Shown here in pieces: positions 27,801 through 64,000 of a DNA stretch of 64,000 nt. The position numbers were made by a program, and so were the translations under genes. The notes below the pieces were generated by a model that had not been told where the DNA came from, did no database searches, and worked only from the letters and a program-made list of their open reading frames with translations. The stretch is from the NCBI RefSeq assembly GCF_010389155.1, contig NC_057763.1, positions 10,416,649 to 10,480,648 of the forward strand, given 5' to 3'. Positions within the stretch are counted from its first letter, which is position 1, and each line of letters begins with the position of its first letter. This DNA comes from Erigeron canadensis. Its lineage: Eukaryota > Streptophyta > Magnoliopsida > Asterales > Asteraceae.

Positions 27801-28259
27801 ATTTGAATCATGCTCCAGATTTCCAGCATATAAAGGAACATCATTGAGTCCCTCAAAAGCTCGCTCTTCCTGAGGATTATCTTGAGCCTGATTATCACCA
27901 GCAGCAGCAGCAGCAACGGGTTCTTCATCTTCCCAACCTTGTCTAGGAGCAACATAGTCAGGATTTATGAGATGTCCGAACAATGATGGATTGGCAACAT
28001 TATCAGGAACACCATGACCTGCAAAGCGTTTCATACTCTCAACAAACACCTTGTGAGTCAGAAGACCCAAATTGAAAGTAGGTCCATCAAAAGGCAAATC
28101 TGCTATTCTGTGTCGAATGATTATCATCACAAATCTTGGAAACAAAAAGAATTTTTCTAAGTCACACGATATGCTTCGTGGTGACGTCAGCACGAGGCAA
28201 AGCGTCTTCGTGATGATGTCATCACGAACCTTCATGCAAATCCAGAATACGAAGAACAA
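24803..28259 (-). pseudogene. Copia B env-like ORF
   Basis: A long protein after pol. 28259-26949 holds a globular region (FFLFPRFVMIIIRHRIADLP, then GLLTHKVFVESMKR), an acidic/Ala-rich linker, a basic patch (RLLKRKRRQGK) and a coiled coil (KKMLEMRVQALENKLQLQ). After one stop the same frame runs on through a Gln/Asp/Ser-rich part to 26199. An AT-rich interruption follows (26198-25923), then 25922-25623, and, after a stop and a frameshift, 25483-24803 (WYYDQRIELFVIKRKKGCQY). The last segment resembles the C-terminal region of ORF2 in element C (RVLELFVPLMSHNM, VRRADGCMYMVQEE), so both belong to one env-like family. Compared with C, about 200 N-terminal residues are missing. Function unknown. 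Confidence 0.75.
25923..26198 (-). other. AT-rich interruption of the B env-like ORF, intron-like
   Basis: About 276 bp of AT-rich DNA separate two same-frame coding segments. It contains two copies of a roughly 75-bp unit (TCATAAATATAATG near 26055 and 26132). At its downstream side the minus strand reads TTTGAATTGCAG before ATAAGCTTC, a good 3' splice-site shape. No convincing GT donor is seen at the other end, so an unspliced insertion or decay is equally possible. Confidence 0.4.
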
Positions 28260-28260
28260 A
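28140..28260. repeat. TGACGTCA-type palindromes at start of B env-like ORF
   Basis: CTTCGTGGTGACGTCAGCACGAGG and CTTCGTGATGATGTCATCACGAA-type motifs lie at about 28166-28230. They are the same motif family as in the B LTR, the B leader and the solo LTR at 47943. The open frame reads through them, which may be accidental. Confidence 0.7.
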
Positions 28261-28461
28261 ACATCTCCATATGATAAAATAATCGATCAAATTCAATCTT
28301 TTATATCATCTTGGACATGTTTTGATTCGTAGTATGCCCACAAACAATGTATCGAAACGAATTAGATGAACACGAAGTGGTTCGTGTTCTTCCTGTGAAT
28401 AGTGACCAAAACACAAATTTTTTCAATAAATCTTGATTTGACACTTGTTTACTTAAATTAT

Positions 28462-29066
28462 TGTTAGATCTAACATGTATAAACATCAATTAATTAAGTC
28501 CATAACATCAAAAATTGAAGATCTAATTATTGGTTCGTCCGAGTTACTGTTCACGCGAAGAAGATTCAAAATATTGGGCATTATAATGACTTGTAATCGT
28601 TAATTTTCATAGTCAAAACATCAATAATCTATCCTAGATTGGAAATATACCAACAAATCTGGATTAGAAACACGAAAAGTAGATGAAATCGATCGAAAAG
28701 GGAACGGATGAATAGTGTACACGAGGAAGACGAAGTTCGTGTGGTTATTTAGGGTTAATTTTCGATTAAAGATAATTAATGAAAGGTTAAAACCAATATT
28801 TATATTCGGAGCTTCGTGGGCCGGGCCGAACACTTAGTTCGTGGCTTCGTGATGACGTCAGCGCAAGGCATGCTGATGTTAGCACGAACGAAGTCGAATT
28901 TTCAGTTTTTAAATTTTCCAGAAAACTTATTAAGGAAAACTACAAAAATTCCAGAAACATAAACCTGTAGATACTCGTTACAAAAAACCTGTATCTACTC
29001 GAATATGCAATCATAGATCATCCGTACTAACTTGTCATCACAATAATGTATCAAATAAATCTTACA
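28462..29066 (-). promoter_or_regulatory. LTR-like promoter upstream of the B env-like ORF (candidate solo LTR)
   Basis: On the minus strand the palindrome TGACGTCA (within 28846-28868) lies about 40-60 bp upstream of GAATATAAATATTGG (28809-28795), which points transcription towards the env-like ORF. The B LTR and the solo LTR at 47943 have the same layout. Possible termini are TGTTAGATCTAACA at 28462 and CTTACA at 29066, with TTAT on both sides. That would make this a 605-bp solo LTR, but a 4-bp duplication is weak. Either way, promoter-like sequence sits before the third ORF. Confidence 0.45.
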
Positions 29067-30870
29067 TTATTATCTTGACATAAAATCGATCATTTCTTCA
29101 TTGATGTTTAGCTTTAAACAAATGCAAACTTACATCAAAACATATTTAATGTATAATGCATTACAAATACATCAAAATATCATATCAACAACCTATCACA
29201 TTACATCTTAGGTTGTGATCTTAATAATACTATTATAACCTATCACACGAAGTCTTAGGTTAATAAATACAAAGCAATCCATCCTTGTAGCACAGTTCTT
29301 GTAATTTCTGAGCACCTTTTATTGTCAATCGCAATGCAATTCTAAAAGTAAGCGAAAACAATTTTGCCTTCAATCACAATCTGAAATTTTTTTTATGCCA
29401 ATTTCATGTAAAATGAGTTTATTATTTGTAACCTGCACACTTAACAAACTTCATCAATGCATCAAAAACAATAAAAATAGCATAAATATGCAAAACAACC
29501 AAAATCTTAACCTAGCAATCTTTACAAGATTTAAGGCAAGTCCAATCTTTGTCAAGCATACTTATCAACCAAAAACAATTGAAATTTCAAAAATTTACTT
29601 GAAACACATTCAAAAATATTTTGACTTTTCAATTTTTAAAATCATTTCATTTTCTAAATTAAACAACTTATGTCCATATATATATTAGAAAATCCATCTT
29701 TTAAAACATACTTACCATAAGCAACAAGACTCATATAATTCACTAAGAATCATATAACTTTCTACAGAATCATTAGATGCTTATCAAATCTAACGTGCAA
29801 TAAAAACTAGTTTGACACACAAACTGACACTTATTAGTACAAAAATAAAAATAAAAATAAAAACAAAAATAACTAAAATAAAAACTAAACTACTTTATTT
29901 ATTTACAAGAAATTCTAAGTTTTTGCAGATTAGATTAGATTAGCATTTACATAAGTCTGCAAGTGAGAAATAATTCTCTTATTATTAGTTATGAACAGTG
30001 ACTCAACCACGATTACCGGTATAGTTGTCCTCTTAAACACTCGGTACTTCCAGTTTCCTTTGAGTTATGACACTTTCGACATACCCTGGCCAAGGATAGT
30101 CACCATGTAACCCGAGTAGCCTAATATGCCATTGAATAGTTTGCGAACTTATGTGACCCACATTCAGATATACTTCCGTAATCGATACAAGCACTAAGAT
30201 AACAAATACTCAATATATATTCAAAAAAATCCTTAAACAAATCATGAGACACTTTTTAAATAACAAAATTTAATTACTTTATGATTTAACTTATTTGCTT
30301 TTGCATTTCAATATTTATAAGGAACCCGTGATTTTCTATGAGACACATGTAGCGAACTTTCTAACAACCTATCCCAAGTTGGAAGCTTTAGGTAGGCTAG
30401 GTATACAAAGACACCCCGAGGACATACTTGTCCGAATCTCAAAGACTACATTAGCCCCTTAATTTACCTTCATTACATTTGCATAAACAATATCACATTT
30501 AACTTTCATGCTCATGAGTTGTAGATGTTTTTCCCTATATTTTGAACAAATCCTATAGTAATGCTAGATCTTTCACAAAATTTAAGGACTAGATCAATTC
30601 ATTACTGAAAAGCAAGCATTCTCAGCCATATATCTGAATATGTTTCCCACAAGAACATTGTATAAATTAAGTTCAGATTAAGGAAACCTCGCCACTTTGT
30701 GTCTACCAATATATCCCAAATTGTAATCACTGAACTAAGCAGTTATATTACAATTAATCAGACTTAAAAGCTAAGTATCCTCACTTCTAACCATCTGACA
30801 ACATTAACTTAAATCTCTTCATATTTTTGTCATTTTCAAATTTTCCATATTTTTATGGTTTTTATGACAC
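29067..30870. other. Non-coding stretch between B pol and env-like region
   Basis: About 1.8 kb of AT-rich sequence without recognisable coding. An (AAAAT)n-like run lies near 29840-29880. This space lies between the pol stop and the third-ORF leader and parallels the 2.2-kb gap between the two ORFs of element C. Confidence 0.55.
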
Positions 30871-33800
30871 TAAGAACTCTTCATATCGAGCCTTATCAAA
30901 TGCTTTGGTATACAGATCAGCTAAATTATCATCAGTTATAACCTTTTCCAAATGAATTAACTTTTTTTGGGCACAATCACGCAAAAAATGATGTCTAATA
31001 TCAATATGCTTGGTGACCTTATGCATGACAGGATTATTTGTAATGTCTATATAGCTGACTTATTGTCTATTCTAATAGGAGTATCAAGAAAATCCATACT
31101 GTAGTCACGAAGTTGTTGCTGAATCCATAATACTTGGGAACAACAGCTACCAGCAGCCATATACTCTGCCTCACATGAAGACTGAGCAACACATGTCTGC
31201 TTCTAACACTACCACGATACTAATCTTCCTCCTAACAACTGACAACCTCCACTCGTAGACTTTCTGTCATTGTTACAAGCGCCAAAGTCCGAATCAGTAT
31301 ATGCAACAAAATGAAACGTTCCTCAAGCCCTTGGTTTCCCTTAAGATAACGTAGAATACGTTTTGCTGCAACCAAATGTGACTCTTTCAGACTAGCTTGA
31401 AATCTAGCGCAAAGACAAACAACGAACATAATATCCGGACACGAAGCAGTCAGATACATCAATGAGCCAATAGTAGCACGATAATAAGTTGCATCCACAA
31501 GTTGATCTTTCGGATCAAGAACTCCTAAACCATGATTTTGCTTAATAGAAGTACCATATGTCTTGGACTCTAACATTTGAAAACTCTCCAAGATGTCATC
31601 GACATACTTAGACTAGTGAATAAAGAATCCATCTTTCCTTTGATCGACTTGCAGTCCGAGGAAAAATTGAAGTTCCCCCATAGCACTCATTTTAAATTCA
31701 TTTTTCTTGCTCATTTCAAACTCTTTGCACATCTTTATATTAGATGAACCAAAAATGATATCATCCATGTAAACTTGTACAATTAGATAATCTCGCTTCT
31801 TCCACTTGATAAACAATGTGCTGTCTATCGATACTCTTATAAATCCATTTGTCAACAAATGTGTCGACAACTTTTCATACCACACTCTGGGTGCTTGATG
31901 CAATCCATAAAGAGCCTTATCCAGTCGATATGCTCTTCTTGGATAATTCGGATCTTCAAACCCCGGTGGTTGGTGAACATACACTTCTTATTTGACTTCA
32001 CCGTATAAGAAGGCACTCTTAACGTCTAACTGATACACCTTTATACCTTTGAAACTTGCATAGGCTAAAAATAACCTTATAGCTTTAATCCTAGCAACTG
32101 GCGCAAAAGTTTCGTTATAGTCATATCCTTCTTGTTGTGCAAACCCCTGAACAACCAAACGTGCTTTATTTCTAGTAACGATCCCTTTGTCATCTCGTTT
32201 GCATTTATATACCCAACAAGTTCCAATCCGTTCTTTACCTCTAGGAACATCTACTAACTCCCAAACTCCAAGTTTTTCAAATTGAGCTAATTCTTCTTGC
32301 ATAGCCTCAACCCAACATGGATCTTGAAGTGCTGTCTTAACATTTTTAGGTTCTACTTGTAAAATGAAACCAGAATATAAACACTCAGTTATCAATCCAG
32401 TGTCTTTCAGTTCACAAAACAAATTAGTCAGGTCCTTATTCAACTAATTTATAGTTCAAACAGGTTCTGTAGCATTACCAAGAATATTTTCAACTGGATG
32501 ATCCTTATTAACTCGATATTGAGGAACCTAATCAACATTCAGACTTTCTCCTAAATTTGTTTTAATCTGAAACTCAGGAGAGCTAAAATCATCTTTCGAT
32601 TCTTCAGAAATAAGATTATCATCAGGCAGTGAAACCTTTGATGGAGTAAGTGGTGTAATGTTCTCGGGTTCACTATTATCTGAATCTGGTGTCTTATTCT
32701 TGTCCTTACCACTTTCATCAACATCAGTAGTAGACTGAACTTTTGTTGGAGTAGTATCGACATTTCGAGTAGGCGGAGATGTAGAAGTATTATCCATGTG
32801 ATCTCTTAAAATAATCACATCATCAACTGTCTCAGGATCTGAATAAGAATCAGGACCATGTAGTGAACTAAACACACTATCGTAATCGAAGTTTTTGCCA
32901 CTTCCAGAATGAATAGCGGGCTTATGACTGACAATCTTGACATTTGTTCCCAAATCAACTTTGCCGGTTTGTTTATTGTAAACCCGTCGAATTGATGTTC
33001 CCAATTTATAACCCATGAAAAATCCCTCTTCAACCTTTGGATCGAACTTTGACCGAGGTAGATACTTCAAGAAAGTACACGGTTCACCAAATGGTTCAAC
33101 ATTCTGTAAATTCGGTTTCTTCTTATGTAGAAGCTCATAACACGTCTTATAATGACGCTTAATTACAGTAACCCTATTTAAAATATGACAAGCTGTATTC
33201 ACAGCCTCCGCCCAAAACATAGTAGGAAGCCCTGAATCTGCAAGCATAGTTCTGGCTGTCTCGATTAGAGTCCTATTCTTTCTTTCAGCAACTCCATTCT
33301 GTTGTGGTTCATACGGAGAACTGTATTGATGTTGGATTCCCTTTGACAAACAAAAGACATCCATCACATTATTCTTGAATTCAGTTCCGTTGTCACTCCT
33401 GATTCTCTTAACATTAACTCCATAAATGTTTTCAGTTTCGACAAAGAAATTTATCAAAATCTGCGGAGTTTCATCTTTCGATTTAAGAAAGAATACCCAT
33501 GAGAATCTCGAGTAATCATCAATAACCACCAAACAGTAATACATCCCACCGATACTTCTTACATTCAATGGACCAAATAAATGCATGTGAAGTAACTCAA
33601 AAGGATTGGCAATAGAATTTTCTTGTTTCGGTTTATGTGAAGACTTTTGCTGTTTACCTTTCAAACAAGGTACACATTTGTCTTCCATTCCAAACCGTTT
33701 CATGGGAACGCCGTCAACCAAACCATGTTTGACAATGTCATTCATCTTTCGAAAATTGATATGTCCCATTCTTCTATGCCATAGTAAAGATTCAGATTCG

Positions 33801-34440
33801 TTTGCTTTCAATAACAAGCAAACAGACTCCTTTGGATCATCAACACCTAACACAAGGCCATAGATGTCTCGCTTCCTAGGAGCTTTCAGCAGGATCCAGT
33901 CTTCAGGAATAACATATCCTGGTTTCAATATAAGTGCTTCTTTCTCAATAAAATGGACATTGTTTCCCTTGTCACAAATCTGAGAAACACTTAATAAATT
34001 ATGTGCTAACTGTTCCACATAATTGACTTTCTCCAACGTAATCTTCCCATTGACAACATCACCTTGGCCCGAGATGTTGCCGCCCTTGGGACCTGCGAAA
34101 CTAACATACGAACCATTTAAATCTTCATAAAGACTGATAGGCTTCCTTGGTTCTCCCTGCACATCAGACAATAAGATGGTCAGTTTCTGAAGGGAACCCA
34201 AACCTTTTGAGGTTTAGGTTTTCCGAATTCATCTCTAATGATCAATTTGGTCCAATATCCATCGCTATGTAAAGGAGCCTTGGATGAAGATGGTGTCATT
34301 GACTGTTTCTTAGGTGAAGTGAAACGAGTCTTAGGAGGTGAATTCCTTGGAGAGTGAGTACCAAATCTAGGTTGACTCCCTAATCGATCATAGAATTTAG
34401 ACGAACTATTAATTCTAGAGGGAGGAGATCAATTTTGTTG
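30870..34440 (-). pseudogene. Copia B pol: protease remnant, integrase, RT, RNase H
   Basis: The segment 34201-32528 contains the end of protease, the zinc region (LWHRRMGHINFRKMNDIVKHG, then CVPCLKGKQQ) and the integrase core with all three acidic positions in context (VVIDDYSRFSWVFFL; IRSDNGTEFKN; PQQNGVAERKNRT). RT runs 32443-31613, with LDVKSAFLYGEV and the catalytic VYMDDIIFG intact. RNase H continues to about 30870 (DNLADLYTKAFDKARYEE). Breaks: stops around 32525-32450, 31985 and 31610, plus shifts in RNase H. The protease D-S-G motif is absent: the sequence passes from KPQKVWVP directly into SLQKLTILLSDVQG. The mainly open frame suggests moderate age. Confidence 0.9.
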
Positions 34441-36021
34441 AGCCATCTTCCTAGGTGAATAACTCCTTTGAGGTGTACGAGAACGACTCGGACATACACT
34501 ACTAGAAGTAGTATTCTGTGAAGGTCCCCGTCGTTTTGAAGTCTTAGATCTATTGTCATGAGCAACAATATCTAAGTCACTAGATCCTCCAGAGGACATA
34601 CCCTTTTCTGGACATCTTCGTTTCCTATTTGGACGACAACTATAAACATGTCCTACTTCATAACAATAGAAACAAGATTTTTTAGCTCTTGCTTTCTTAG
34701 CTTTAACATCAAACTCAGCTGGAGTCATGCCTAAACATTCATTAAGTTCAATTGTGGCTGACTCATCTTTTGATAAACCAGTTAACTCATTTTTATCAGA
34801 AAAATGTACCTTCTTTTTAGAATTCTTATGAGTCGTATATGGAGTTAATGGAATTCCACTAGACGTAGATTCATCCTTATTCCATACTTTATCAATCTTG
34901 TCGTGATCTATCTTTTCAAAATCAATTTCATTGGATGTAAAAACAGTATCACATGCCTTCATCATAAAACATTTAATGTTTTTATTGACAGGACAAGTTG
35001 AATTCACTTGACTAGATCTTATAGGAACACTAGCATCATACACTCCATTTTTAGGATTTACTGGTTTAACAAAAGAACTTTCAAGCTTATGTTTCTTGTT
35101 TAGCTCTTTTATCTTATCAATCGAGCTTTTAGAGCTTTTAGGGGTCTTAGGATCAACATTTTGTTTTCCTGAAATGATCGGACCAATTTCACCAATATCG
35201 ACCTTTTCAGTAAGCTGTGTTCGAGACTCGGTATAATTATCATTGAATGGACCTCTAACTTCATTATAACTCATACCCAAACCACTTTTGTCTTTTGCAT
35301 CCCGTGGTACAGGTTTTTGCATCTGCATTGATCTTATTAAATCAGATCCCCTAATTTGATCTAGTCTTGTATTAAGCTTAACTATCTCCAACTTTGCATC
35401 AACCAATTCTTTCTCTTTCTTAGAAAAATTCTCAGTTAGTTGAGCATATTGTTCATTTCCAACTTTTTCCATTAATACTCACTCTTTTATTTTTTCTTTC
35501 AAAGCAAGAATATCCTTATCAGATGCACAAATCTTATCTTGATAAAGACTTTCCTGTTTCACCAAACCAGAATTTTTGGCAAACAAAGAGTCGTTTTCTT
35601 TCTTGAACATGGAGTTTTGACTAGTCAAGTTAATAAAAGATTTATTCAGAATAAACACCTCAAGTTTCAAATCTGACACCATTTTACAAACGTCAACTAT
35701 AGAATACAAAGAACAAGATATCTTCTGATCTGCAGCCTTGCAATCTGTCATGTATGCAACAAAGTCTTCAGTTGTCATACCTTCAGGTATCAAGAAGTTC
35801 TTCATTTGTTCTTCAATGCTCTTCGTAGAAATGTCATCAGCAGGACTCGATGACTCTTCCTTTTCGTCAGATGCTTTCACTGTTGTCACGGGTTCACTCT
35901 CAGATCTCACAGTCTCAGCAACATTACATATATTCTGCTTAACTATCTCAGATGCACTTTCTTCACTTGAGTATACAACATAATCAATTGTTGCAGCTAC
36001 CTCATCATATAATTCCATCAT
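34429..36021 (-). pseudogene. Copia B gag linker with second zinc knuckle
   Basis: Two segments, 36021-35479 and 35472-34429, form a long hydrophilic linker between gag and protease. It has coiled-coil-like stretches (EKELVDAKLEIVKLNTRLDQ) and then a second CX2CX4HX4C knuckle (CFYCYEVGHVYSC near 34675), followed by a basic Arg/Ser-rich tail. It ends near KPKPQKVWVP where protease should begin. The long linker with an extra knuckle is unusual for Copia elements in general but fits large Sire-type gags. Stops separate the segments. Confidence 0.75.
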
Positions 36022-51700: not shown

Positions 51701-52471
51701 TAAACACTTCTTAAGGAACGTATGTCGTCTCGTCAGCTGAACACTTTCTTAAGGTTTGACATGTGGAACACATCATGTACATTACTAAGCTCTTGAGGAA
51801 GTCTCAAACGGTAAGCAACAATACCAACTCTCTCTCTAACCTCAAACGGTCCAATATATCTTGGAGCTAGTTTTCCTCTCTTGATGAATCTTACTACACA
51901 TTTCCAAGGCGACACTTTAAGCATGACTCGATCACCAACCTGAAACTCTAAAGGTTTCCTTCAGTTGTCAGCATACTTCTTTTGTCTATCTCTAGCCTTC
52001 ATGAGGTTTTCCTTGATTTGTGCAATCTTTTCTGTAGTTTCCACAATGATTTTTGGTCCTATCAACTGCATGTCTCCCACTTTGTGCCATGCAAGTGGAG
52101 ATCGACACTTCCTACCATACAAAGCCTCAAAAGGCGGACACCCAATAGTCGAATGATAACTATTGTTATACGAGAACTCTACTAGTGGGAGGTGAGTATC
52201 CCAACTTCCTCCAAAGTCGATAACACACGCTCTTAGCATGTCCTCTAAAGTCTGAATCGTCCTTTCACTCTGTCTGTCTGTCTGAGGATGATAAGCTGTA
52301 CTCATATCTATTCGCGTTCCCAAAGCCTGTTGCATTGATTTCAAGAATCGTGACGTAAATTGGCTATCTTTGTCACATATGATTGATACTGGAATGCCGT
52401 GCTTAGCTACAATCTCTTTCAAATATAGTTGCGCATATTGTACCATCTCATAATCTTCTCGGATGGGTATA
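51701..52471 (-). pseudogene. Gypsy D integrase, C-terminal part
   Basis: From the C insertion at 52471 downwards: [36 protein letters not shown] (second acidic residue), [20 protein letters not shown] (catalytic Glu) and [14 protein letters not shown] stop follows at ADN-stop-RKP, near 51962. Then come VMLKVSPWKCVVRF and KLAPRYIGPFEV, the module found at the end of Tekay/Del-type chromovirus integrases. After MSNLKK the frame shifts (KCSADETTYVP) and stops. No chromodomain is visible. The N-terminal part lies at 63721-64000. Confidence 0.9.
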
Positions 52472-52758
52472 TGTTACAGATACAAAAATAGTGCTTCGTT
52501 GTATTTATCTTTATGAACTATATGTAATAGTTATAAGGTTGAGAGAGAGCTTTTGTAAGTTTCCATAGAGTATATAAACCCCTCATACCTTCTTTTTCAT
52601 GTATGAACTTGTAACCAGAACACATTCACGTGATTTGAATGAAATCATCTTCCCACACACACATACCTTTCTCTCTCAAGAACACACACTTAAACACACT
52701 AACCACCATTGTTGAACACCTATCTTCCGCATCAAAACACGAATAATTAACATTTATC
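52472..52758 (+). repeat. 5' LTR of element C
   Basis: 287 bp starting TGTTACAGATACAAAAATAG, with a TATA box GAGTATATAAACCCC at 52568-52582. It matches 63433-63720 with a few percent of differences (about 9 in the first 140 bases by eye). The shared sequence ends CATTTATC rather than the usual CA. Confidence 0.92.
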
Positions 52759-52761
52759 TTT

Positions 52762-52773
52762 TGGTATCAGAGC
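52762..52773 (+). other. Primer binding site of element C
   Basis: TGGTATCAGAGC, an exact initiator-Met match, three bases after the LTR. Confidence 0.93.
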
Positions 52774-53737
52774 AAAACAACAATCTGTTGAAGATCCATA
52801 TCAAATTCTACACAGATTCGTGTTGATTTTGTACAAAAATTTGAATTTCGTGTATAAACATAACCGTCTCTGTTTTTCATCATTTCTACATCAATTTTCA
52901 CTCAATATTCCTGTTTTTGTTCACTAATCCATTCTAAATCACCTCAGAAAACATCGTGTTAAATTTCAGAATCCAATTCATTGTATTCATCATAATCCGA
53001 AATTGTGGGCAAACCATCAAAATTTTGGGTTTGAATTTGAGTTGATTTGAGCTATAATTTTGTTTCTAGGGTTGTGCGCGATCATATTCTTAACATTTTC
53101 ACTTTTGAATCAAGTTCTAACTCTCAAAAATGAGTGACAAAATAGAGATCTAGTGATTCTGCACGACTATTTTGTCTTATCTGCTGTTCTTGAGGAAAGT
53201 CTTATTCGCTAAGACCGTTTCACTTATTTGTTCTAAGACGATCTTCCTCAAGATCATCCTAGTGATATTTTGTTGTGGTGTTAAGACAATCTTGCCAAGA
53301 TCGTCCTAGCATCTGTTGGTTCTGTGTGAACTGTGTGTGGTGATTTGATGGTTCGAAGTTGTTGTGATTAGGAATCACACACTTCCTGGGTAACTAATCT
53401 CTTTGAGATTGGTTTTGCTCAAAAATCCTGAAATCCTAATCAAAATTATGTCCAAATTTCCAAAGTTTTCATACTTAGAATATTTTTTACTCAAAGTGTT
53501 CTAAGACGATCTCCCCAAGACCGTCTTACTTTATAACTTAAGACGATCTCTTTCAAGACCGTCTTACCTTCCTGTCTTCCATACTTAGAATTTTTTTTCC
53601 TTATTTCGTTCTAAGACGATCTTATTCAAGATCGTCCTAGCTTCCTTTCTTCAATACGATCTTTTCAAGATCGTCTTGTCTTCCAAACTTCAAAATAATA
53701 AAAAAAAAAGAATCCAAATCATTGTTCATTCATTTCA
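52774..53737 (+). promoter_or_regulatory. 5' leader of element C with GACGATCTT palindromes
   Basis: A 964-bp non-coding leader. At least six imperfect palindromes of the form AAGACGATCTT-n-AAGATCGTCCTA occur at 53224, 53284, 53503, 53541, 53614 and 53644. Between them 53330-53430 holds a block (GTGTGGTGATT ... TGGGTAACTAATCTC, ATTGGTTTTGCT) repeated in the second leader at 57562-57650. The hairpins could act in RNA packaging, dimerisation or translation; this is inference. Confidence 0.75.
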
Positions 53738-56368
53738 ATGACAACAACCAACATTGATCCAATGATGTCAATCATCAGACCCCCAATTCTTCACAAAAAT
53801 TCTTTTGTCCAATGGCAAAATGAATTCATGGATTTTCTTGATACAAAACCAAATGGTTTCTTCATTAAGCAATCAATTCTTGAAGGTCCAATTCAGTTCA
53901 AAGACCCCAATGGAGTTCTTCTTCCAACTGAGCAAATGACTGATGTTCAAAAAGCAAGAATCCAAGCTGACAAACAAGCCAAATCCTATATCTATCAATC
54001 TCTTTCAGATGAGATTTTCCCTGCTATCAATCATGATCATAATGCCAAAGAGATATGGGATGATTTACCAAAGTTTGCTGCTTCTGAAAATGTCAACTGC
54101 TTGATGACTTCAACAACCAGTTCTTCACAAACTACCTCACAAGCAACATCAAGTGTGGTAGATTTCATTTCTAAAGATGAGTTCTTGTCTGTCCAAACAA
54201 CTGCTAAAATTTTGACAAAGCAAAACCTTACTTTGAAAAACAATTTGAAAATGGCTAAACAAGAGTTTGATAAAATCAATGAAATTTTTTCAGAACTCTC
54301 AATAGCTCATGAAGCTCTCAAAGTGAATTATGATTCTTTAAAAGAAACGCATTTGTCAAGTACCAGTTCTCAAGTTGTTTCTGCCAATGCTCATTTAACT
54401 AACAAATGTCAAGACCTTGAAGAGACTGTCCATTCACTCAAGCAGACCATTGAGACTTTAAAGCTTGAGAAAACCAATGAGTGGATAAGAGCTAATGCAA
54501 GACAAGCTGATGTTGAGTTTTTCACAAATAAAATGAAAGATTTTAGACCCAACTGTGAAAAACATTAAAGACAGATTTTTGATTTAAATAGTACTCGTTT
54601 TCTCAAAGGAGTTGAAATTGAAACTCTTCAAAAACAGGTTGAGGAGTTGAAAGCAAATGTTTTGTTCTATCAGGAAAAAATCTATAAAATTGAACAAAAT
54701 CCTCTTCTGAATTTCACTGCTTATTATAACAAGTCAAAGATTGATAGATCAGAACTTCTTCTTGGTTTCGGTTATGATAACCCAGCACACTTGGAAAAAA
54801 TCCAAAAAGAAGACCTTGGTCGACTTTATGATGAAAAATGTCTTAGACTTGGCATGATTCAATAATTCATCAGACCATCTGAGGATGACTTTGAGTCAGA
54901 TGATGTTGAAAGACCAAAACAAATTCAGATTGATTATGTTGCTATTAATGACACATATAAGAAAACTCATAAAAGATCCATCTATGAGTTAGAAGAAATT
55001 GACAGCATTTCAATTCCTGAAAATGATTTTCAAAAAGTTTGTTTAAAACCAGTTTCAACAAGAACTTATATTCCAACTACCATATTGGAAAAAGAAATTG
55101 AAGGTTTAAAACAAAAAATTGAGTCTCAACAAAAGGTCATTGAACATTTGAAAACTCAAGATCATACTTCAAAGGTAAGTGAGACCACCCCTACCTAAAG
55201 GTTACATGATCTAACTTCTGTTGATTACTCCACTCAGTCCAAAGAGTGTGAGATTTCTAACAAAGCTGTGCAGGGTGAAAGAATCTCTCCTCAAGAGATT
55301 CATGATATGTCTTCTTCAATGTTCTCATCATTTCTCCAGATGGAAGAAAAAGTTCAAGCTTTGAAAGCCAATAATCTTTCTTCTGTGAAAAAGATACTTT
55401 CTTTTGATACTCCTGTGATCACCCCAGTTGACCAAAATAGAGTGAATTTAGAGCACAAGATTGAGATTTCTAAAGATCTTAAGGCTAAAGCAAAAGCATT
55501 AATTGAAAAGATGACAAACAAAACTGTTTCCAAATCTGAAGTTCAATCAACAGTTTTACCATTTTCTTTTCCAGATTTTTCTGTTAAAGAACTTGATAAG
55601 TTTTTAGAAACTGAACATGTTTTTGCATCAGAAGTTGAGAAAGAACTTGCAAAACTTTGACCCAAAAATCCTAAAATTGAAACAAAGAAAGAATCTAGGT
55701 CTAAGTTTGCTCCAAATTCATTTTATTCACCCAAAGGTTAGCATGCTTCAGCTGTCAAAGGTAAAAAGACCATTCCTTCTACTTCAAAGGTCAAGTTTGA
55801 TATTTCATCTGTTTCTAGAACTGCTGCTAATAATTCTATCTCTAAACCTAGTTCTTCATTTAAGCTATCTAGGTCTAGTCAAACTTTGCTAACCAAAGAC
55901 AAATCAAATGGTATGACTAGATATAGAGATCAATATGGTTGGTTCTCTGTTGCAACTCCAAAGAAACAGACTGTTAAATCTTCCATTAAACAAGGCAAAA
56001 TTCAGAATGTGTTTTTAGCTAGTAACTATAAATGGATTTCCAAATCATCATTGATAAAATCTACTAGCTACGTTCAAACACAAGGGTATACTAAATCATC
56101 AGTTAAAAGAAATTGGATAGCTAATGATTACAAGAAGAAAGTTCCTACTAGGAAACTTGATTCAAATTTGTGTAATTTAGCCAAATCATGGTCTGTAATA
56201 AATTCTAAATCTTCTACTGTGATTTCTAAACCTCTGATTACTGACGCAAATGGGATTGTCATAAATTTTGAGAATAAACCTCTTGTTCGAAAACCTCATT
56301 TGTATACATTTCCTTATTCCACTAACCTCAAAGGACCCATTCAAAAGTGGGCACCTAAAAAGAATTAA
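53738..56368 (+). pseudogene. Element C ORF1: gag N-terminal domain plus coiled-coil linker
   Basis: Reading frame 2 is continuous over 877 codons, interrupted only by in-frame stops at 54566, 54863, 55196, 55658 and 55739. Residues 1-110 resemble the N-terminal gag region of Copia elements (RPPILHKNSFVQWQNEFMDF; SLSDEIFPAINHD; KEIWDDL). The late capsid domain and the CCHC knuckle that should follow are absent. Instead come long coiled coils (LTLKNNLKMAKQEFDKINEI; LEETVHSLKQTIETLKLEK), a FGYDNPAHLEKIQ motif, further coiled coil and a basic C-terminus ending GPIQKWAPKKN. In Sire-type gag-pol such a phrase directly precedes protease. So ORF1 stops where pol would begin. Confidence 0.82.
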
Positions 56369-57409
56369 TTTTGTTTTGCAGGTAATAAAGGTCTGTGTTT
56401 AGCATTCCTATCCTGGATACTATTCAACACATGATCCTGGAATGAGTTTCTTTTCTAAGAGATAATCTCCAATAAGTGCTCATTACCAATGCACTTACTT
56501 GCCTTTGCATGTTTAGTAAAATTCCTTCATCTCTTTCTCTTTAATTCATTATCTGTCAAACATTCATGCTATGTTTATGCGCAATGTGCTTAAATATCAT
56601 GCAATGTTTGAGGGGGAGAAAAAGAATAATTCATGAATCTTGAATCTAGGGTAAGTTTGTGTATTAGCACTATTTGATGAGAAACTCATTGTTAATTAGA
56701 AAAACAAATAAAAATTGGAAAATGAAAAAAATTATAAAGAAGCCCAAGTTGAAAGCCCATTTGCAATTTATATGTCCAAACCCTTTTAATCCGGGTCAAA
56801 TACCCATGACCCGATCTGTATCTTGGTATACAAGGAGGGAAAGATTTTCTTCTTCTTTTATTCTATTACATTTTCCCGTAAAACACTTTCTAATCTCTTT
56901 CTCTCACAAATCATTCAAAAATCATCTTGGCCTGATCATTGAATCAAAACAAGGGTTGTGTTTCATTTTTCAAGCAGATCATTTCATTCCATGTAATCAT
57001 CATCTAAAAATTCCATATTCAAATAAGATTTCGAACTTTAAAGTATATCTCATTTATTCAATTTTGCTCGAAATTCTTGCTTCTGGTTATGTTTCTGTGT
57101 ATATGGTATGATTTAGAAGCATGTTTAGGATATATGTGTATGATTTTTACATGTTGAAATGCTTGGAATTGTGTTTTTGAAAATTCAAAAATAACCCCCC
57201 CTGTTTCAGTGGAGAAGATGACCTAAAACAGTCTTGATTTGGTTTAGTTCATTTGTTGATTATTTAGTGATTTGTGTTAGTAAGTAATGTTATAATATGC
57301 TTTAGTGATAATTTGAATCATTGTTCTGATATATTTGTTTGTGTTTTTAACTGCTTGGAATTAGAACGATCTAGGCAAAATATTCCCATTTTCTTGTCAG
57401 GGTTGGTTC

Positions 57410-58125
57410 TAGGACGATCTTGACTAAGATCGTCTTGGTTCCAAAACAACTTGGAAATGAGACGATCTTGCCAAGACCGTCTTAGTTCCACATACTTGTT
57501 TTTCTTTTGAAACCCCTGAGACCAAGACCAAGACGATCTTGTCAGGATCGTCTTAGGGTCTGTACGCTGTGTGGTGATTGGAAAATCTATTGATAACAAT
57601 TGAATGGGTAACTGATTTCGAAAGAAATTGGTTTTGCTTAATGCTAATACCTTCAAATACAAGGGGAAACTATGCTCAATTTTTTCCAGAAATTGACATA
57701 ATTTCAACTTATATTTCTAAAGTATTAGAATTTTTCAAAACTAAAGTGAAGTGTTTTGTCACTTGATTTCCAAAACGATCTTACCAAGATCGTCTCAATA
57801 TTCCTTCACTTCAAAAGGATTTTTAATAAGGTTCTTAAGACGATCTTCATCAAGATCATCTCTTTTTCTCATACTTAACCATTTTTCAAAGAATAAAACT
57901 TAAGACGATCTTCACCAAGATCGTCCCATTTCTTCTTTCTATACTTAAACCGTTTTCTTCTCATAAACCTTGATACGATCTTTACTAGATTGTCCCACTG
58001 CTTTTCAAGACTTAACATTCTTTTCAAAATGTTAAGATGATCTTCATCTAGATCGTCCCATAATCGCCTTTGTTTCATAACCTGAGTTGAAACTCAGGAC
58101 GATCTCCTCAAGATCGTCCTAGTTC
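57410..58125. repeat. Second array of GACGATCTT..AAGATCGTC palindromes
   Basis: Nine units at 57413, 57461, 57531, 57772, 57837, 57901, 57972, 58034 and 58097, spaced 30-240 bp apart with unrelated sequence between. Loops of 2-5 bases; arms 9-11 bases with occasional mismatches. Confidence 0.85.
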
Positions 58126-58234
58126 CCATACTTAGAATTTTTTTTCAGTTTTAACAATTTTTTTCCCGAAACCCTAATTTCTTGTGTGGTGTGACAAAGT
58201 GCTTTATATAGTCATATATTTGCAATATATTTGA

Positions 58235-58480
58235 AATACGAGGAATTGAACGCCTTTGTGTACTTCCATGCTATTCTCATGTATCTTGTACTTATATGAT
58301 TATATCTTATTTTCAAAGTTATATATATTTCTATATATAAAAATACGAGGAATTGAACGCCTTTGTGTACCTCCTTACTATGTTTATATATGGAAATATG
58401 TATCTAACTATTCTGTGTTTATTTTCTCATGTCAAATTATTTGTATGGAATACACTGAGTTGATCGCCATTGTGAACCTC
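58235..58480. repeat. Three-copy tandem repeat before ORF2
   Basis: AATACGAGGAATTGAACGCC recurs at 58235 and 58343, and a diverged GAATACACTGAGTTGATCGCC lies at 58447. Spacing is about 105 bp. The upstream extension of the ORF2 frame runs through it, but the peptide there is hydrophobic and low-complexity, so I take 58592 as the real start. Confidence 0.7.
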
Positions 58481-58591
58481 TTTGAGTTTTATATAAATAA
58501 TTTGTATGAAACTTGTTATTTGCTTTTCAAACATTGTTTTATGTGTGAGTTAATCTTGTTATTTCATAAATCAGAAAATCAAAAAATAAAA

Positions 58592-61500
58592 ATGGATCAT
58601 CAAGAAGAAATTCATCAAGATGAAGAGATTGCCTTAAATGAAACAATTGAAGAAATCCTCATTGTTGGCAACTCATCTAAAATGAAGAACAATAGAGCTC
58701 TTTCAGATCCATTCACTGCTCCGGGATTCCCAATTGTCCCGAGAATTCTTCATAATCATCCATTGTCATATGCTCTTACTGTTGAAAGAGAATTAGCAGA
58801 AGTTTATCTATATCAGATATGGAGAACCATAAGCTTTGTTCAACCACAAGATCCATCAAGTTCAAGAACCAAGCCAAAACATAAATCTCCAGAACTTCAC
58901 CGACAAGGCTTCTTTCAATATCAACTTAATTCTGGAGATAGAATATACGATTTTGAGTTCAACCTTGATGATTTCAGAAGACTTTTGAGACTTCCTGAAG
59001 CTAATTCTAATAATCATGCTAATTTTGATGAATTTGAGTCAAATGATATCATGTTTGCTCCCTTGATATCACTTGGGTATGAAGGTCCATTGACAAAGAC
59101 TAAAGATTTCAAGCTGAAAAACCTTCCCAAGATCTGGTACTATGTATACTCCATCCTAAGCAACTGCTTGACACCATACAACAGAGGAATGGATAATTTG
59201 ACTCAACCAATGTTGCATATCTTTTATGGAGTTGTCTTTGATAGACATTATGATATTGCTCAACTTCTGTGGGACCAGCTGATTATATTGGTTAATGGCA
59301 AGATCTCGGCTCCCAAGAAGTACATTCCATTCATTAGATTTCTGACAACAATTGTTCATGGAGCTGTCAGACTTGAGAAGAGCATCCCAAGACTCCTTAA
59401 TAGTACAAAAGTTGAACTTCAACAATATAAGTATGTTAGAGATTCTGGCATGGCATCTTATGCTTACTTGATTCCATCACATCTGTTGGATTTAGTTTCC
59501 GAAAATCATGTGGATTACCAAGCTTATCTGGACTGGATTAGAACAACTCTGGGACCGGCAAGCCTCCCGGTTCCTGCCCAAGTTGTGCATAGGACACCAA
59601 GTGAGGGGTCAAAGAGAAAAAGAAAAGAGCGTGAGGGTGTATCCAGTTCCAGTGAGCCTAAAAGAAGAAAGATTGTGAAAGGCCAAAAGTTTGAGTTAAG
59701 ATTAAGGAAACAAATGTTTCAGAGAAAGAAGAAGGGGAGCTTGTCAAAGAAATTGAAGAGAAAAGCTCCTGCTGAACCTTCTTCGCCTGCATCTTCTGTG
59801 GAGACAGTTTCTATTGCTGGGTCTCCAAAGCCGATTAGATCTCCACCACCAAACACATCCACTTTGAGATCATCTTCACCCAAAACTCCGTCACCTTAGA
59901 GATCATCAACTTCATCATCATCACCATCTTCACCAAAATCACCTCAAACACCACAAATGCCTATTCATCAATCTTCACCACTTCCTGAATTTACATCACC
60001 TATACAACCAACTATGGAACCATCACAATCTCAAACCGTCATATCTCAAATTCCTTCATCCTCATCATTCCCTCGATCACCTCACCCAACTTATTTTCAA
60101 GGAATAATGAAATCAATTCTTGTTAACATTCGCAAAAACTTTAAGAGATCAAGATTTGAATATGATCGTTTTCAAACCACTGCACCAGAAGATGCACATG
60201 ACTCTAGTGATAATGAGTCAGATTATGAGAATGCCAATAAATTTGCTGATGATGTCATGGACATCCCGGAGGGACAAGGTGGACATGAGGGAGGAGTTGA
60301 AATACCGGAGAGGTTGAGAGGTCAGGGCTAGGAGAAAGGCAAAAAGAAAATGTTGGCCTCCATTTAGTTCAAAACATCTATCAACGTCGGGTTCGCCCTA
60401 GGATAGAAGTCGAGAGCTCCCAACTCTCGCAAGGTCAAACCTCCGCTAGCCATTCGGAAGTCTCTCAACAGACTGACGTCTCATTAATACACGAGCAAAA
60501 TCCACGTACTCCATTCCATTCTCCTTCAGAGTCTGTGAATGTTGAAACACAAGAGACATCTGCTCCTCTCTTGGACTTCATTTCTGCACAATTGTCTAGT
60601 ACCCCACTGAGGACACCTTTTGCACCAATTGTGATCCCATATGCACATCTAGGTGATGTTGCCAGAAGAAACATAGAGAGATCGGCTATTGTGCCCTCTC
60701 GAGGATTGTTTGGAAGTCCTTCCATTGCTAACGTCACGCCAGCTTTGAACGAAGGCGCCTTAGTGGCTAGATTGGCTGTACGACAGTATGAGTTCCTTAG
60801 AACTCAATCTGTTGTGTCAGCTCTTCATGCCTTAGGCATAACGGCAAGTCTAAGTGATTCCGGAGTTATTCACCTCCATTTCCCACAAGATTCTAGTTGC
60901 AAAGCGGAATCATCAACTGTTGTTCATACTTTTGAACAAACAGGAAATCCTGAGATAATAATGATGTCTTCGGGTCACTCGGTAGACTCACTTGAGACTA
61001 CTAAAGTGCCAGATTCTGTTATTCCTCTTCCACTTGAAGCTCAAATGTTGGTATCTTAGTTAGTTGAAGGAATTGAGGAGGGTCAGTGAAGTGAACTCCT
61101 CGTGACAAGAAATGTGATTACCGGAAAACTCCCAGCCACCGATACAAGTTCACCATCACCAAGATTGCGTACTGGTGGTGCTTTAATCATTCGTAATCCA
61201 GTAGCATCTTCATTGTCTCCTCGTCAAATTACACCATCTCCATCAATTCATAGAACAACAACATTGCAAACAATACCAACAACTCCATCAAGTCAAACAA
61301 CAACACCCATTACAACTTCACCAATTCAAACAACCACAATAATTTCAACAATTCCACCAATAACTACAACAACACCAATCAATCAATCATTCCCCAATCC
61401 AAGTTCACCGCATCATTCTTCCAGTTCTTCTTCCGAATCTTCTGAGTCTGAGTACTTGAGTGATTATTCTCCAAACAGAATTGCCACAAGTGGTTTATCA

Positions 61501-63393
61501 ACCGACACTCTAATTCTTTCTCTCATGCATCGGTTAAGATCAGAAGAACCACATCTCACTTCCCACAAAAGATCAATCTTTCAATCACTTCTTGCTTATT
61601 TGTCACATCAAGAAACTCAACAAGCAAAGCAAGCTAAAGTAGAAGCACTTCAGAAACGAGTTCGTGAGCTTGACCAACAATGTAGACTGGCCGATATCTC
61701 CAGAAGTCGGGATGATCAAGATTCTGATGATCAACCCGAGGGGGAGAATATAAGAGATATTGGAGAGGGTCATGAAACACAAGGACAAGATGGTCAAGAA
61801 CCTAATCTACAAAATGTGAATCAAGATCAAACTAATCAAGATCAAACTAAAGCTCAAGCTTCTACATCTCATGTTAATGAATCGGATTCAGATGATCTAC
61901 CCCAACTTGATGTTCTACCTCCACTTGTTCAAGATATTTTTCATTATTACTCCACAACTTCTGACGAATCAAGTGATCATGATCCATTTCAAGCAGAAGA
62001 AAGTGAGTTTGAGTCATCTGATTCAAGTGATCCTGATAATGCTCCAACAAATGTACAATCTCAACCAGAAACATATGGGAAAAACATCTTTGAAGAGATT
62101 GTCTATCATTTGAGAAATCCAGAGAATCTTGAAACTCCGAGTGAGCTTGCACAAGGAGTCATACATCCAAGAATCTCAAGCAAAAGGATATGGCAGATCA
62201 ATGAAGGGTATTTTGTTGAAAACTATGAGCAAATTCTTGATTTAAGTACAAAACCCGATGATATTGTGTGCAGAGCTAGATATCTTGAAGAAAGAGCTTT
62301 CCAGATCTTCTGCACATCAGATGAAAGATTGAATATGACTTTGAATCGGTTGAGAGCATTCTTTATATTCCATTGTAATGATCAAAGAGACAAGTACATA
62401 GAGTTGATGAATGCTGTAAGTTCTGTGAGAGAAGAATGGTGGTATAGGCAGCTTGAAAGACCAATCACAAGAGTGCTAGAGTTGTTTGTTCCTTTGATGT
62501 CTCACAATATGAGACTTGTTCGATTCAAAGTTCGCAGAGCAGATGGTTGTATGTACATGGTTCAAGAAGAATCCTTTCAACATTTAAAGATCTCAGACAT
62601 TCTGTTCCTTTACAAACAATATGCTTATCTGATAATCAAGACTCCCGACCAACTCCAAGCATATGAAGCATTGAAAAGCCATTTACAAGCTGTGATTAGA
62701 TTTTATGAGTTCAATGATTTTCAAATTGGTTTGGAGAGAAGAACCAGAAGAATCAATCTCACAAGACCAAATCAAAGAGCTGGGGGTTATGAGCTTGATT
62801 CATATTAGATTGGTGATACAATTGAAGACTTAGATGGATTCGTCTTCATTAATCGTTTAAAGAGAAAGATCTTCATTCGTGCTTTAGATTTCCCTAAGTA
62901 TTCTGATGGTACTTTGAACTACTGCTTGTCCATTTTGAATGTATTGGATGAAGATGCTGGAAATGAGGAAGAGGATCACATCAAGTTGCAGAGGAGAAAT
63001 CATATTAGACGTATTAAAGCTGTTCTTGAAATACGTCAAAGAGTAAGAGATCTTATTGTTGAAAGGACTCCAAAAGCTCAAGAAGGAGTAAGGCATACCG
63101 AGACTGGCTCATGGGTTCTTTGGAATCCTAGTCACAAGCATGGTCCTTACAACATTCCTCCAATGAAGTTCCAAGATAATATCCGATTGCCAGATGATCG
63201 TCCTGAAGGTGATAATTGGCATTTCATTCCTAAGAAATATTGGAAAGACACTTGGAGTACTTACAAGAAAAGAGCTTTCTGGGGTTCTAAGATTGATAAG
63301 CCATCAACATCAACTGCTGCACAAAGTTATAAGAAGAAAAAGTACAGGAAAAGAAGAGCAAGCATGAGAAGAAGACATCAAAAGAAGAAGTAA
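58592..63393 (+). pseudogene. Element C ORF2: env-like protein, about 1600 codons
   Basis: I chose the ATG at 58592 (MDHQEEIHQDEEIALNE), after an A-rich leader. Frame 2 runs to about 60330 with one stop (59897). A frameshift at 60250-60340 moves it to frame 1, which runs to 63393 with stops at 61057, 61087 and 62806. Residues 40-320 form a globular domain (RELAEVYLYQIWRTISFV; PKIWYYVYSILSNCL; MLHIFYGVVFDRHYDIAQLL; KKYIPFIRFLTTIVHGAVRL). Next come a nuclear-signal-like basic tract (KRKRKEREG; EPKRRKIVK), Ser/Thr/Pro-rich linkers and a second globular domain (RVLELFVPLMSHNMRLVRFK; DGCMYMVQEESFQHLKISD). The end is very basic (KKKKYRKRRASMRRR). The second domain resembles the B env-like C-terminus. 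No obvious signal peptide or membrane helix is seen. Function unknown. Confidence 0.8.
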
Positions 63394-63419
63394 TGGACAA
63401 TCGAGCTTACAACCAAGCA

Positions 63420-63432
63420 CTAAGGGGGAGAA
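63420..63432 (+). other. Polypurine tract of element C
   Basis: CTAAGGGGGAGAA immediately precedes the 3' LTR. Confidence 0.9.
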
Positions 63433-63720
63433 TGTTAGAGATACAAAAATAGTGCTTAGTTGTATTTATCTTTATGAACTTTATGTAACAGCTATAAGGT
63501 TGAGGGGGAGCTTTTGTAAGTTTCCATAGAGTATATAAACCCCTCATATCTTCCTTTTCATGTATGAACTTGTAACCAGAACACATTCACATGATTTGAA
63601 TGAAATCATCTTCCCACACACGCATACCTTTCTCTCTCAAGAACACACACTTACACACACTAACCACCATTGTTGAACACCTATCTTCCACATGAAAACA
63701 CGAGTAACTACACATTTATC
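63433..63720 (+). repeat. 3' LTR of element C
   Basis: 288 bp starting TGTTAGAGATACAAAAATAG and ending CACATTTATC, followed by ATATAAAATG of the D integrase. If the next A is counted, the LTR ends in CA and the duplication is TATA. If not, it is GTATA/ATATA with one change. Confidence 0.92.
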
Positions 63721-64000
63721 ATATAAAATGTGCTGACTTGGTCAGTCGATCTACAACAACCCATATCGCATCCTTACCACTATTAGTTCTAGGTAACTTG
63801 ATGACAAAGTCAATGCTAATACTTTCCCATTTCCATTTGGGAATCTCTGGTTGCCTCAACAGACCTCCCGGTTTCTTGTGTTCTACTTTAACCTTCAGAC
63901 ATGTTATCGCAAGTCTTTATACTTTCCCAGGTAAACACTTGCTCACATAAATCGCCACATCATTTTTCATTCCTGGCCACCAAAATAGGTCTCGCAAGTC
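63721..64000 (-). pseudogene. Gypsy D integrase, N-terminal part, cut by window edge
   Basis: On the minus strand: DLFWWPGMKNDVAIYV (zinc-binding end), a damaged CxxC region with a stop, VEHKKPGGLLRQPEIPKWKW, then ESISIDFVIKLPRTNSGKD and IWVVVDRLTKSAHF, the start of the core with its first aspartate. It then meets element C. The frame resumes with IPIRED at 52471, so one gene is split by C. RT, RNase H, gag and the 5' LTR of D are right of the window. Confidence 0.9.

What the first reader, a model, noticed from the sequence alone, without database searches (positions are those of the whole stretch)
52472..63720. An 11-kb LTR retrotransposon that carries gag-like and env-like genes but no pol
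Seen: matched LTRs, PBS, PPT, a nearly exact insertion site, and two long ORFs with no protease, integrase, RT or RNase H motif. Known: Sire-lineage Copia elements carry gag, pol and a third env-like ORF; non-autonomous elements usually keep either nothing or gag alone. Inference: pol has been lost cleanly, because ORF1 ends at a phrase (GPIQKWAPKKN) that normally precedes protease, while the env-like gene was kept at about 1600 codons. Keeping the env-like gene without pol suggests the two proteins do something useful to the element, with a helper supplying enzymes. This is the best candidate here for an undescribed system.
Basis: partly seen in the sequence, partly recalled or inferred. Interest (0 to 1): 0.88.

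Follow-up and report, generated by a model that had tools for sequence, protein, structure and literature searches.

The report
Pol-less retrotransposon that keeps two proteins
A plant jumping element that lacks the enzymes needed to copy itself exists in many related copies that have kept two large proteins of their own under natural selection, which suggests that those proteins help the element in a way still to be tested.

Summary
In detail: an 11.25-kb LTR element inside an integrase gene, with PBS, PPT, a gag-derived ORF1, a 1,600-codon ORF2 and no pol. In this copy both ORFs are broken. It is not a private deletion: a 27-base 3'-end pattern has 242 genome matches (control 0), and 78 of 89 ORF1-ORF2 pairs lie 1.9-2.6 kb apart, too close for pol, with homologous spacers in the subfamilies read. 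dN/dS is about 0.14-0.16 for the two ends of ORF2 (shifted frames 1.2-1.5; its middle 0.3-0.85) and about 0.4 for ORF1. No pol-bearing partner was seen, but only a small, best-scoring part of the candidates could be examined. ORF1 is not a full Gag (no zinc knuckle). ORF2 shows no transmembrane stretch; part of it matches the region after pol in a Tanacetum Copia polyprotein. Palindromic boxes cluster in the 5' UTR and before ORF2, as known before the env gene of Sireviruses; the one B copy scanned has mostly another box form. Best reading: a long-lived, trans-mobilised Sirevirus derivative whose proteins act on its own nucleic acid, perhaps through the boxes. Helper and binding are inferred. 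New variant of a known kind.

The parts
52468..52471 (.). left copy of the 4-bp target repeat TATA (right copy 63722-63725)
   Evidence: five of seven A elements compared have a perfect 5-bp repeat, this one only 4 bp
52472..52759 (+). 5' LTR
52765..52773 (+). PBS TATCAGAGC (Met-tRNA type)
   Evidence: Sirevirus PBS as given in PMC2829016
53235..53678 (+). cluster of palindromic boxes (AAGACGATCTT...AAGATCGTC type) in the 5' UTR
   Evidence: 13 of 14 readable 5' UTRs in fetched LTR loci have at least two (looser criterion)
53738..56368 (+). ORF1, gag-derived: partial Retrotran_gag_2 domain, coiled coil, ends GPIQKWAPKKN; broken by stops in this copy
   Evidence: dN/dS
56369..58591 (+). spacer between ORF1 and ORF2, where pol would lie; no pol match; homologous in the subfamilies read
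56611..56618 (+). extra copy of the PPT octamer AGGGGGAG, about 240 bp after the ORF1 stop
57411..58121 (+). second cluster of palindromic boxes, within 1.2 kb upstream of ORF2
   Evidence: 29 of 30 fetched copies have at least two upstream, 0 of 30 in the fetched ORF2 part
58234..58498 (+). three repeats at ~107-bp steps just before ORF2; three similar ones at the same place in one B copy
   Evidence: D3; D4
58592..63393 (+). ORF2, third (env-like) ORF; broken by stops and a frame change in this copy
59051..59602 (+). ORF2 stretch matching the region after pol of a Tanacetum Copia polyprotein (26%, E 2e-12)
63409..63422 (+). left arm of the inverted repeat around the PPT/3' LTR junction (right arm 63450-63463, 13 of 14 paired by my count)
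   Evidence: sequence printed, read against PMC2829016
63423..63430 (+). PPT AGGGGGAG, start 10 bp before the 3' LTR
63433..63721 (+). 3' LTR

Best explanation
This is one decayed copy of a large, long-lived family of Copia (Sirevirus-like) LTR retrotransposons that lack pol. The family is copied by enzymes and capsid made by other elements. It kept two non-enzymatic proteins, a coiled-coil Gag remnant (ORF1) and the third ORF of Sirevirus type (ORF2). Shown: the shared pol-less layout in the copies examined, the many copies, purifying selection on both ORFs, recent insertions, and the two clusters of palindromic boxes. Inferred: the enzymes come in trans; ORF1 and ORF2 were kept because they act preferentially on the element's own DNA or RNA; the most likely route is recognition of the palindromic boxes by ORF2, either as a transcription or anti-silencing factor or to mark the RNA for uptake into a helper's particles.
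For: Layout: 40 of 48 ORF1-ORF2 pairs in the A set and 38 of 41 in the B set lie 1.9-2.6 kb apart; the spacer is homologous over most of its length in A, A' and B, and over much of the 1.2 kb before ORF2 in one A'' and one B' copy. 3' ends: 242 matches to a 27-base PPT/LTR pattern at up to 2 mismatches, 0 for the reversed control; of the 100 listed, 55 have a listed ORF2 hit within 12 kb upstream, and 17 of the 45 others were fetched, 17 of 17 carrying ORF2 sequence (one, L076, only 46-47 residues). Selection: ORF2 first 435 codons A vs A' 0.161 (125 pairs), A vs B 0.157 (5), A' vs B 0.165 (25); frames +1 and +2 of the A-A' pairs give 1.18 and 1.54; ORF2 C-part, from loci chosen by the PPT pattern and not by protein, 0.137 in 36 pairs; ORF1 A' vs B 0.40, coiled-coil part 0.19-0.28. 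Recent activity: LTR K 0.007-0.058 in seven A elements, 5 of 7 with perfect 5-bp repeats; one B element K=0.014 with a 5-bp repeat. Boxes.
Against: No helper was identified. Each search scored only a small part of its first-look candidates (ORF2 97 of 1,901 and 97 of 1,751; RT 150 of 9,154; integrase 120 of 10,157), so a rare pol-bearing master could be hidden, and the finding that 0 of 270 RT or integrase hits follow an ORF1 end has little power. Eleven of 89 pairs do not have the short spacing; one (6.5 kb) proved to hold a non-coding insert, the other ten were not read. ORF1 and ORF2 differ in divergence (dS 0.46 against 1.2-1.4), so the family is mosaic and the shared layout may in part have spread by recombination. 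Constraint is uneven: the C-terminal third of ORF1 gives 0.53-0.68, pieces of the window's ORF1 0.17-0.74 against A' and 0.11-0.76 against B, the ORF2 middle 0.31-0.85; ORF1 has no shifted-frame control. Nothing shows that ORF2 binds the boxes.
Confidence: 0.6

Rival explanations
1. A few pol-bearing master elements with the same ORF1 and ORF2 carry the selection; the pol-less copies are dead-end by-products of deletions.
For: The scans scored only the best part of the candidates, and single decayed copies look like by-products.
Against: Subfamilies up to dS 1.3 apart share a homologous spacer; 78 of 89 pairs are pol-less; 17 of 17 extra 3' ends carry ORF2; young copies of A and B are pol-less (K 0.025 with 2.4-kb spacing; K 0.014). 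Weak: 0 of 270 RT or integrase hits follow an ORF1 end.
Confidence: 0.17
2. A private deletion of pol in this one copy.
For: The copy is decayed.
Against: The same layout in dozens of copies of at least two subfamilies.
Confidence: 0.01
3. Trans-mobilised pol-less family as in the best explanation, but ORF2 acts as a chaperone, movement or particle protein and the boxes are promoter elements read by host factors.
For: For the palindromic motifs of known Sireviruses mainly stress-related host factor sites were recovered (PMC2829016 section 9); the env-like role is open (passages of PMC7264820).
Against: The boxes lie before ORF2 and in the 5' UTR, none of this type in the LTR, and in the one B copy scanned 11 of 12 boxes of both clusters share a different arm.
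Confidence: 0.2

Closest known systems
Sirevirus genus of Copia elements (SIRE lineage), env-bearing members
   Same: PPT octamer at the same place, PBS, inverted repeat around the PPT/3' LTR junction, coiled-coil Gag, a third ORF, palindromic repeat boxes before that ORF (PMC2829016, passages and sections 7 and 9)
   Different: no pol; LTR of 287 bp against 0.8-1.7 kb in the rows of Table 2 that I saw; attachment site AA/TG instead of AT/TG; no zinc knuckle; boxes in the 5' UTR instead of the LTR and with another core
TR-GAG non-autonomous elements
   Same: LTRs, gag-type ORF, no pol, one seen to move (passages of PMC8704663)
   Different: TR-GAGs have a single ORF for GAG; here there are two ORFs and ORF1 is an incomplete Gag
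Domain-deficient Retand elements
   Same: recently active elements that lack some domains yet keep extra ORFs (passages of PMC11963269)
   Different: Gypsy; extra ORFs mostly antisense; the ten deficient clusters lack GAG (7), GAG and AP (2) or RH and INT (1)
VANC anti-silencing proteins of VANDAL elements
   Same: a protein of a transposable element that reads short repeated motifs in the element's non-coding parts, with motifs evolving together (passages of PMC5735166)
   Different: DNA transposons; sequence similarity not tested here beyond Pfam scans without a match; only an analogy of working

Membership tests
Sirevirus (Copia, SIRE lineage) | PPT AGGGGGAG starting 10 bp before the 3' LTR | tested here: met
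   definition from PMC2829016
Sirevirus (Copia, SIRE lineage) | PBS TATCAGAGC after CA/ATTGG | tested here: met
   PBS met; intervening bases TTTGG in A copies and TGTGG in B, 1-2 bases off
Sirevirus (Copia, SIRE lineage) | inverted repeat around the PPT/3' LTR junction | tested here: met
   13 of 14 bases paired, my count on the sequence printed
Sirevirus (Copia, SIRE lineage) | attachment site AT/TG | tested here: not met
   AA/TG in A and B
Sirevirus (Copia, SIRE lineage) | several PPT copies near the 3' LTR | tested here: not met
   octamers at 56611, 61739 and 63423 in the internal part, only one within 0.5 kb of the LTR; one more inside the LTR at 63503
Sirevirus (Copia, SIRE lineage) | palindromic repeat boxes before the env-like ORF | tested here: met
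Sirevirus (Copia, SIRE lineage) | palindromic boxes in the LTR, CGG-CCG core | tested here: not met
   core differs; no box of this type in the LTRs (other palindromes in the LTR not scanned)
Sirevirus (Copia, SIRE lineage) | Gag with zinc knuckle and coiled coil | tested here: not met
   coiled-coil matches, no zinc knuckle in Pfam scans
Sirevirus (Copia, SIRE lineage) | place in the RT tree | not testable with these tools
   the element has no RT
TR-GAG | LTR element without pol | tested here: met
TR-GAG | single ORF encoding GAG | tested here: not met
   two ORFs; ORF1 incomplete
Retroviral envelope | transmembrane segment | tested here: not met
   highest 19-residue mean hydropathy 1.29 in the intact B ORF2; no dedicated predictor was run
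VANC-like factor | binds the element's own repeated motifs | not testable with these tools
   needs a binding assay

The most novel reading that the evidence does not exclude
A retrotransposon lineage that gave up capsid and all enzymes and lives as a parasite of other elements, kept going by two proteins of its own, one of which reads a self-specific palindromic code placed in its 5' UTR and before its gene; the code and its reader change together, so that each subfamily promotes only its own copies.
Probability: 0.25. Interest if true: 0.82.

Novelty: new variant of a known kind. Interest (0 to 1): 0.62.

Why it matters
Non-autonomous LTR elements are usually thought to need few or no proteins of their own (general knowledge), and the role of the plant env-like ORF is unsettled. 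Here the enzymes are gone and the third ORF is still under strong selection at both ends, so it must do something for its own element that is separate from replication chemistry. With subfamilies that carry different palindromic boxes and with intact ORF2s, that question becomes testable by simple binding assays.

Tried and rejected
Private deletion: rejected. True envelope: no transmembrane stretch; no Pfam, NCBIfam or PDB match of ORF2 above chance or cut-off. Pol hidden in the 6.5-kb spacer: a 4.2-kb non-coding insert. Pol after two A copies without a listed ORF2: the C1 copy carries a nested Copia element, the C7 copy no open stretch of 90 residues in the 5 kb read. Window ORF 26949-28259 as a relative of ORF2: no similarity. 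Helper by gag, PPT, RT family and Tanacetum integrase: none seen within the capped lists. Relatives of ORF2 elsewhere: N-part one weak hit in Tanacetum, C-part none, N-part none in phages, whole ORF2 none in viral contigs.

Rows dropped before counts: rows that do not reach the ORF1 C-terminus and the six array rows on C6 were left out (109 rows used); for, 70 of 81 ORF1 rows (ends of shorter ones projected) and 76 of 99 ORF2 rows (mainly A-type rows already counted and fragments were left out), second pieces of integrase hits were left out; for the ORF2 C-part dN/dS, L074, L076, L079, L080, L081 and L082 of the 17 loci were left out as truncated or out of frame, and stops in the others were skipped. 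Nei-Gojobori with Jukes-Cantor saturates at dS above 1; two blocks gave no value.
Full report
What is there. The window lies in a genome of 426 Mb in 356 contigs, nine of them (C1-C9) of 38-61 Mb. The finding is an LTR element from 52472 to 63721 on the + strand. It sits inside a minus-strand integrase gene; taking out the element and one copy of a 4-bp TATA repeat restores a 233-residue open frame, whose left part matches the integrase core weakly. LTRs are 287-289 nt with 16 differences. PBS and PPT are present. ORF1 (53738-56368) and ORF2 (58592-63393) are both broken in this copy. Between them lie 2.2 kb without a recognisable gene; the longest open stretch there is 147 codons and was not tested against families.

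No pol. In ten pieces tested, the only transposon match in Pfam is a partial Copia gag domain in ORF1 (27 bits, at the cut-off, positions 27-80 of 172). A Copia polyprotein of Tanacetum cinerariifolium (P0002), used as a tblastn query, finds pol in two other regions of the window (31-34 and 43-46 kb), which serves as a positive control, and in this element only ORF2 (59051-59602, 26% identity, E 2e-12). In P0002 that stretch lies after the integrase domain and, by my reading, after RT and RNase H. This is the ground for calling ORF2 the third, env-like ORF of a Copia element. That P0002 itself is of the SIRE lineage is my reading, not a test.

A family, not an accident. The LTR, ORF1 and ORF2 all find many relatives in the genome; every list holds only the best-scored part of the candidates. 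Two main groups appear: A with its relatives A' and A'' (this window; ORF2 73-100% alike), and B (ORF2 about 68-70% like A), with a B' copy at 76% to B. In the three B copies read, ORF1 has no gag N-domain but starts and ends alike. I paired ORF1 ends with ORF2 starts on the same strand. In the A set 48 of 97 ORF2 hits found a partner within 20 kb among 109 ORF1 ends, and 40 of the 48 lie 2.04-2.59 kb apart. In the B set 41 of 76 found a partner within 25 kb among 70, and 38 of the 41 lie 1.87-2.49 kb apart. Of the 11 exceptions one was read: a 6.5-kb spacing that holds a non-coding insert. The spacer is homologous over most of its length between this window, A' (L065) and B (L061-L063), and over much of the 1.2 kb before ORF2 in one A'' (L086) and one B' copy (L087).

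The 3' end. A 27-base pattern spanning the PPT and the LTR start has 242 matches at up to 2 mismatches and none for the reversed control. Of the 100 listed places 55 have a listed ORF2 hit within 12 kb upstream. Of the 45 others I fetched 17, chosen by hand as lacking a listed ORF1 hit near; all 17 carry ORF2 sequence next to the PPT, one of them (L076) only 46-47 residues. The other 28 of the 45 and the 142 unlisted matches were not read. Among 150 RT hits and 120 integrase hits none lies within 7 kb after any of 156 ORF1 ends, and one lies within 7 kb before one; these are 150 of 9,154 and 120 of 10,157 first-look candidates, so this test is weak and a rare pol-bearing element is not excluded.

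Selection. I computed dN/dS by Nei-Gojobori on codon alignments. ORF2, first 435 codons, 5 A, 25 A' and 1 B copies: within A 0.29, within A' 0.175, A against A' 0.161 (dS 0.58), A against B 0.157 (dS 1.36), A' against B 0.165; the A-A' pairs read in frames +1 and +2 give 1.18 and 1.54. These copies were picked by protein similarity, which can bias dN down. The C-terminal part was therefore tested on loci picked by the PPT pattern, 11 of 17 usable, with the window and one B copy: A-type against B 0.137 in 36 pairs, within B 0.157. Along ORF2 the middle is less constrained: blocks of 0.31-0.34 and one of 0.85. ORF1, one A' against two B copies: 0.40, with 0.19-0.28 in the coiled-coil part and 0.53-0.68 further on; five open pieces of the window's ORF1 give 0.17-0.74 against A' and 0.11-0.76 against B. 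ORF2 values rise in the youngest comparison (within A), as expected if copies drift after insertion. ORF1 and ORF2 have very different dS, so the family is mosaic.

Age and activity. Seven A elements have LTR divergence K of 0.007-0.058; five of the seven have perfect 5-bp target repeats, the window copy (4 bp) and one other do not. Of these seven, ORF2 hits confirm five (window, C5:14.12M, C4:12.59M, C4:15.18M, C7:17.03M), and the other two fit by the distance from ORF1 end to 3' LTR only. One B element has K 0.014, a 5-bp repeat, and both ORFs open. The pol-less form has thus been moving until recently.

The proteins. ORF1 of one A' copy (about 856 codons, 854 used) has a fragment of the capsid domain (21.5 bits, below the cut-off), a long coiled coil (matches to SMC and HAUS1 models are of that kind, all below cut-off) and ends in GPIQKWVPK, much like the ISRWVPKSN end of another Copia gag in L067. 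No zinc knuckle was found. ORF2 of one B copy (1,587 codons) has conserved N- and C-terminal parts and a serine- and proline-rich middle; no 19-residue stretch has mean hydropathy above 1.29, so it does not look like an envelope protein. Pfam, NCBIfam and PDB sequence searches give it no name.

The boxes. In the window element palindromes of the form AAGACGATCTT-spacer-AAGATCGTC occur in two clusters, in the 5' UTR and at 57.4-58.1 kb before ORF2, and not in the ORFs or LTRs. Of 30 ORF2 copies 29 have two or more such boxes in the 1.5 kb upstream, the exception (L034) having lost most of the spacer, and none of 30 has one in the fetched ORF2 part. Of 14 readable 5' UTRs 13 have at least two by a looser criterion, three of the 14 being duplicates of one insertion. 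The one B copy scanned has boxes in the same two places; 11 of its 12 have the arm AACGATCT, most often within AACGATCTAAATTTAGATCGTT. One A'' and one B' copy have the A form, so the B form is probably the newer. Sixty first-order Markov sequences gave no such box in either spacer. Bousios and others describe palindromic repeat motifs, different from element to element, in Sirevirus LTRs and, in elements with an env gene, before that gene (PMC2829016, sections 7 and 9 and passages). The boxes here look like that class, but sit in the 5' UTR instead of the LTR.

How it most likely works. The element's RNA is made from its LTR, and reverse transcriptase, integrase and capsid come from another element; PBS, PPT and LTR ends are what a Copia helper would need. 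That is inference. A protein that helped all elements alike would hardly be kept in an element that cannot profit more than its neighbours; selection on ORF1 and ORF2 implies that they favour their own kind. Boxes that lie only in the non-coding parts, before ORF2 and in the leader, and that have changed almost together in the B copy, are the natural target. The VANC proteins of VANDAL elements work in this way on DNA (PMC5735166, passages). Whether ORF2 reads DNA (against silencing) or RNA (for packing), or neither, cannot be told here.

Compared with what is known. TR-GAG elements keep one ORF for GAG and lack pol; one has been seen to move (PMC8704663, passages). Retand clusters can lack GAG, AP or RH and INT and keep antisense ORFs (PMC11963269, passages). 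A review of extra ORFs in plant elements, of which I saw passages, places them relative to gag and pol (PMC7264820). My searches of the held library around pol-less elements with an env-like ORF (I saw listings of at most 20 papers each) showed no such family by title or abstract, which is not proof that none is in print; most subscription papers are not held.

Host. One ORF1 relative is a database protein of Erigeron canadensis named flocculation protein FLO11-like, which by my reading is a gene model made of ORF1 and ORF2 parts of this family.

Noticed in passing
G000:C6:17190438-17196368: Six ORF1 C-terminal matches at exact 1,128-bp steps: apparently a tandem array made from part of this element.
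   Followed up: no
P0004: A database protein of Erigeron canadensis, 'flocculation protein FLO11-like', reads like a gene model stitched from ORF1 and ORF2 of this family; annotation built on a transposon.
   Followed up: partly
P0003: A 690-residue ORF1 relative (72% identity) from an unnamed 2.7-kb ENA contig, also without the gag N-domain.
   Followed up: no
G000:C7:30106837, C7:30268093, C252:12987: One insertion present three times with the same flank: a segmental duplication, inverted on C7, or a haplotype contig.
   Followed up: no
window 26949-35472, minus strand: Another Copia element with gag_pre-integrase, integrase and SH3 domains and a 436-residue ORF without any family match.
   Followed up: partly
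L067:337-5000: A nested Copia element with a gag that has a zinc knuckle and ends ISRWVPKSN, inserted in an A copy.
   Followed up: partly
window 58234-58498 and L062:106-356: Three repeats at ~107-bp steps directly before ORF2 in the window and in one B copy, function unknown.
   Followed up: no
ORF1 against ORF2: Synonymous divergence between A' and B is 0.46 in ORF1 but about 1.2 in ORF2, with a change of identity inside the spacer (about 80% before, 69% after 56.8 kb): exchange between subfamilies.
   Followed up: partly
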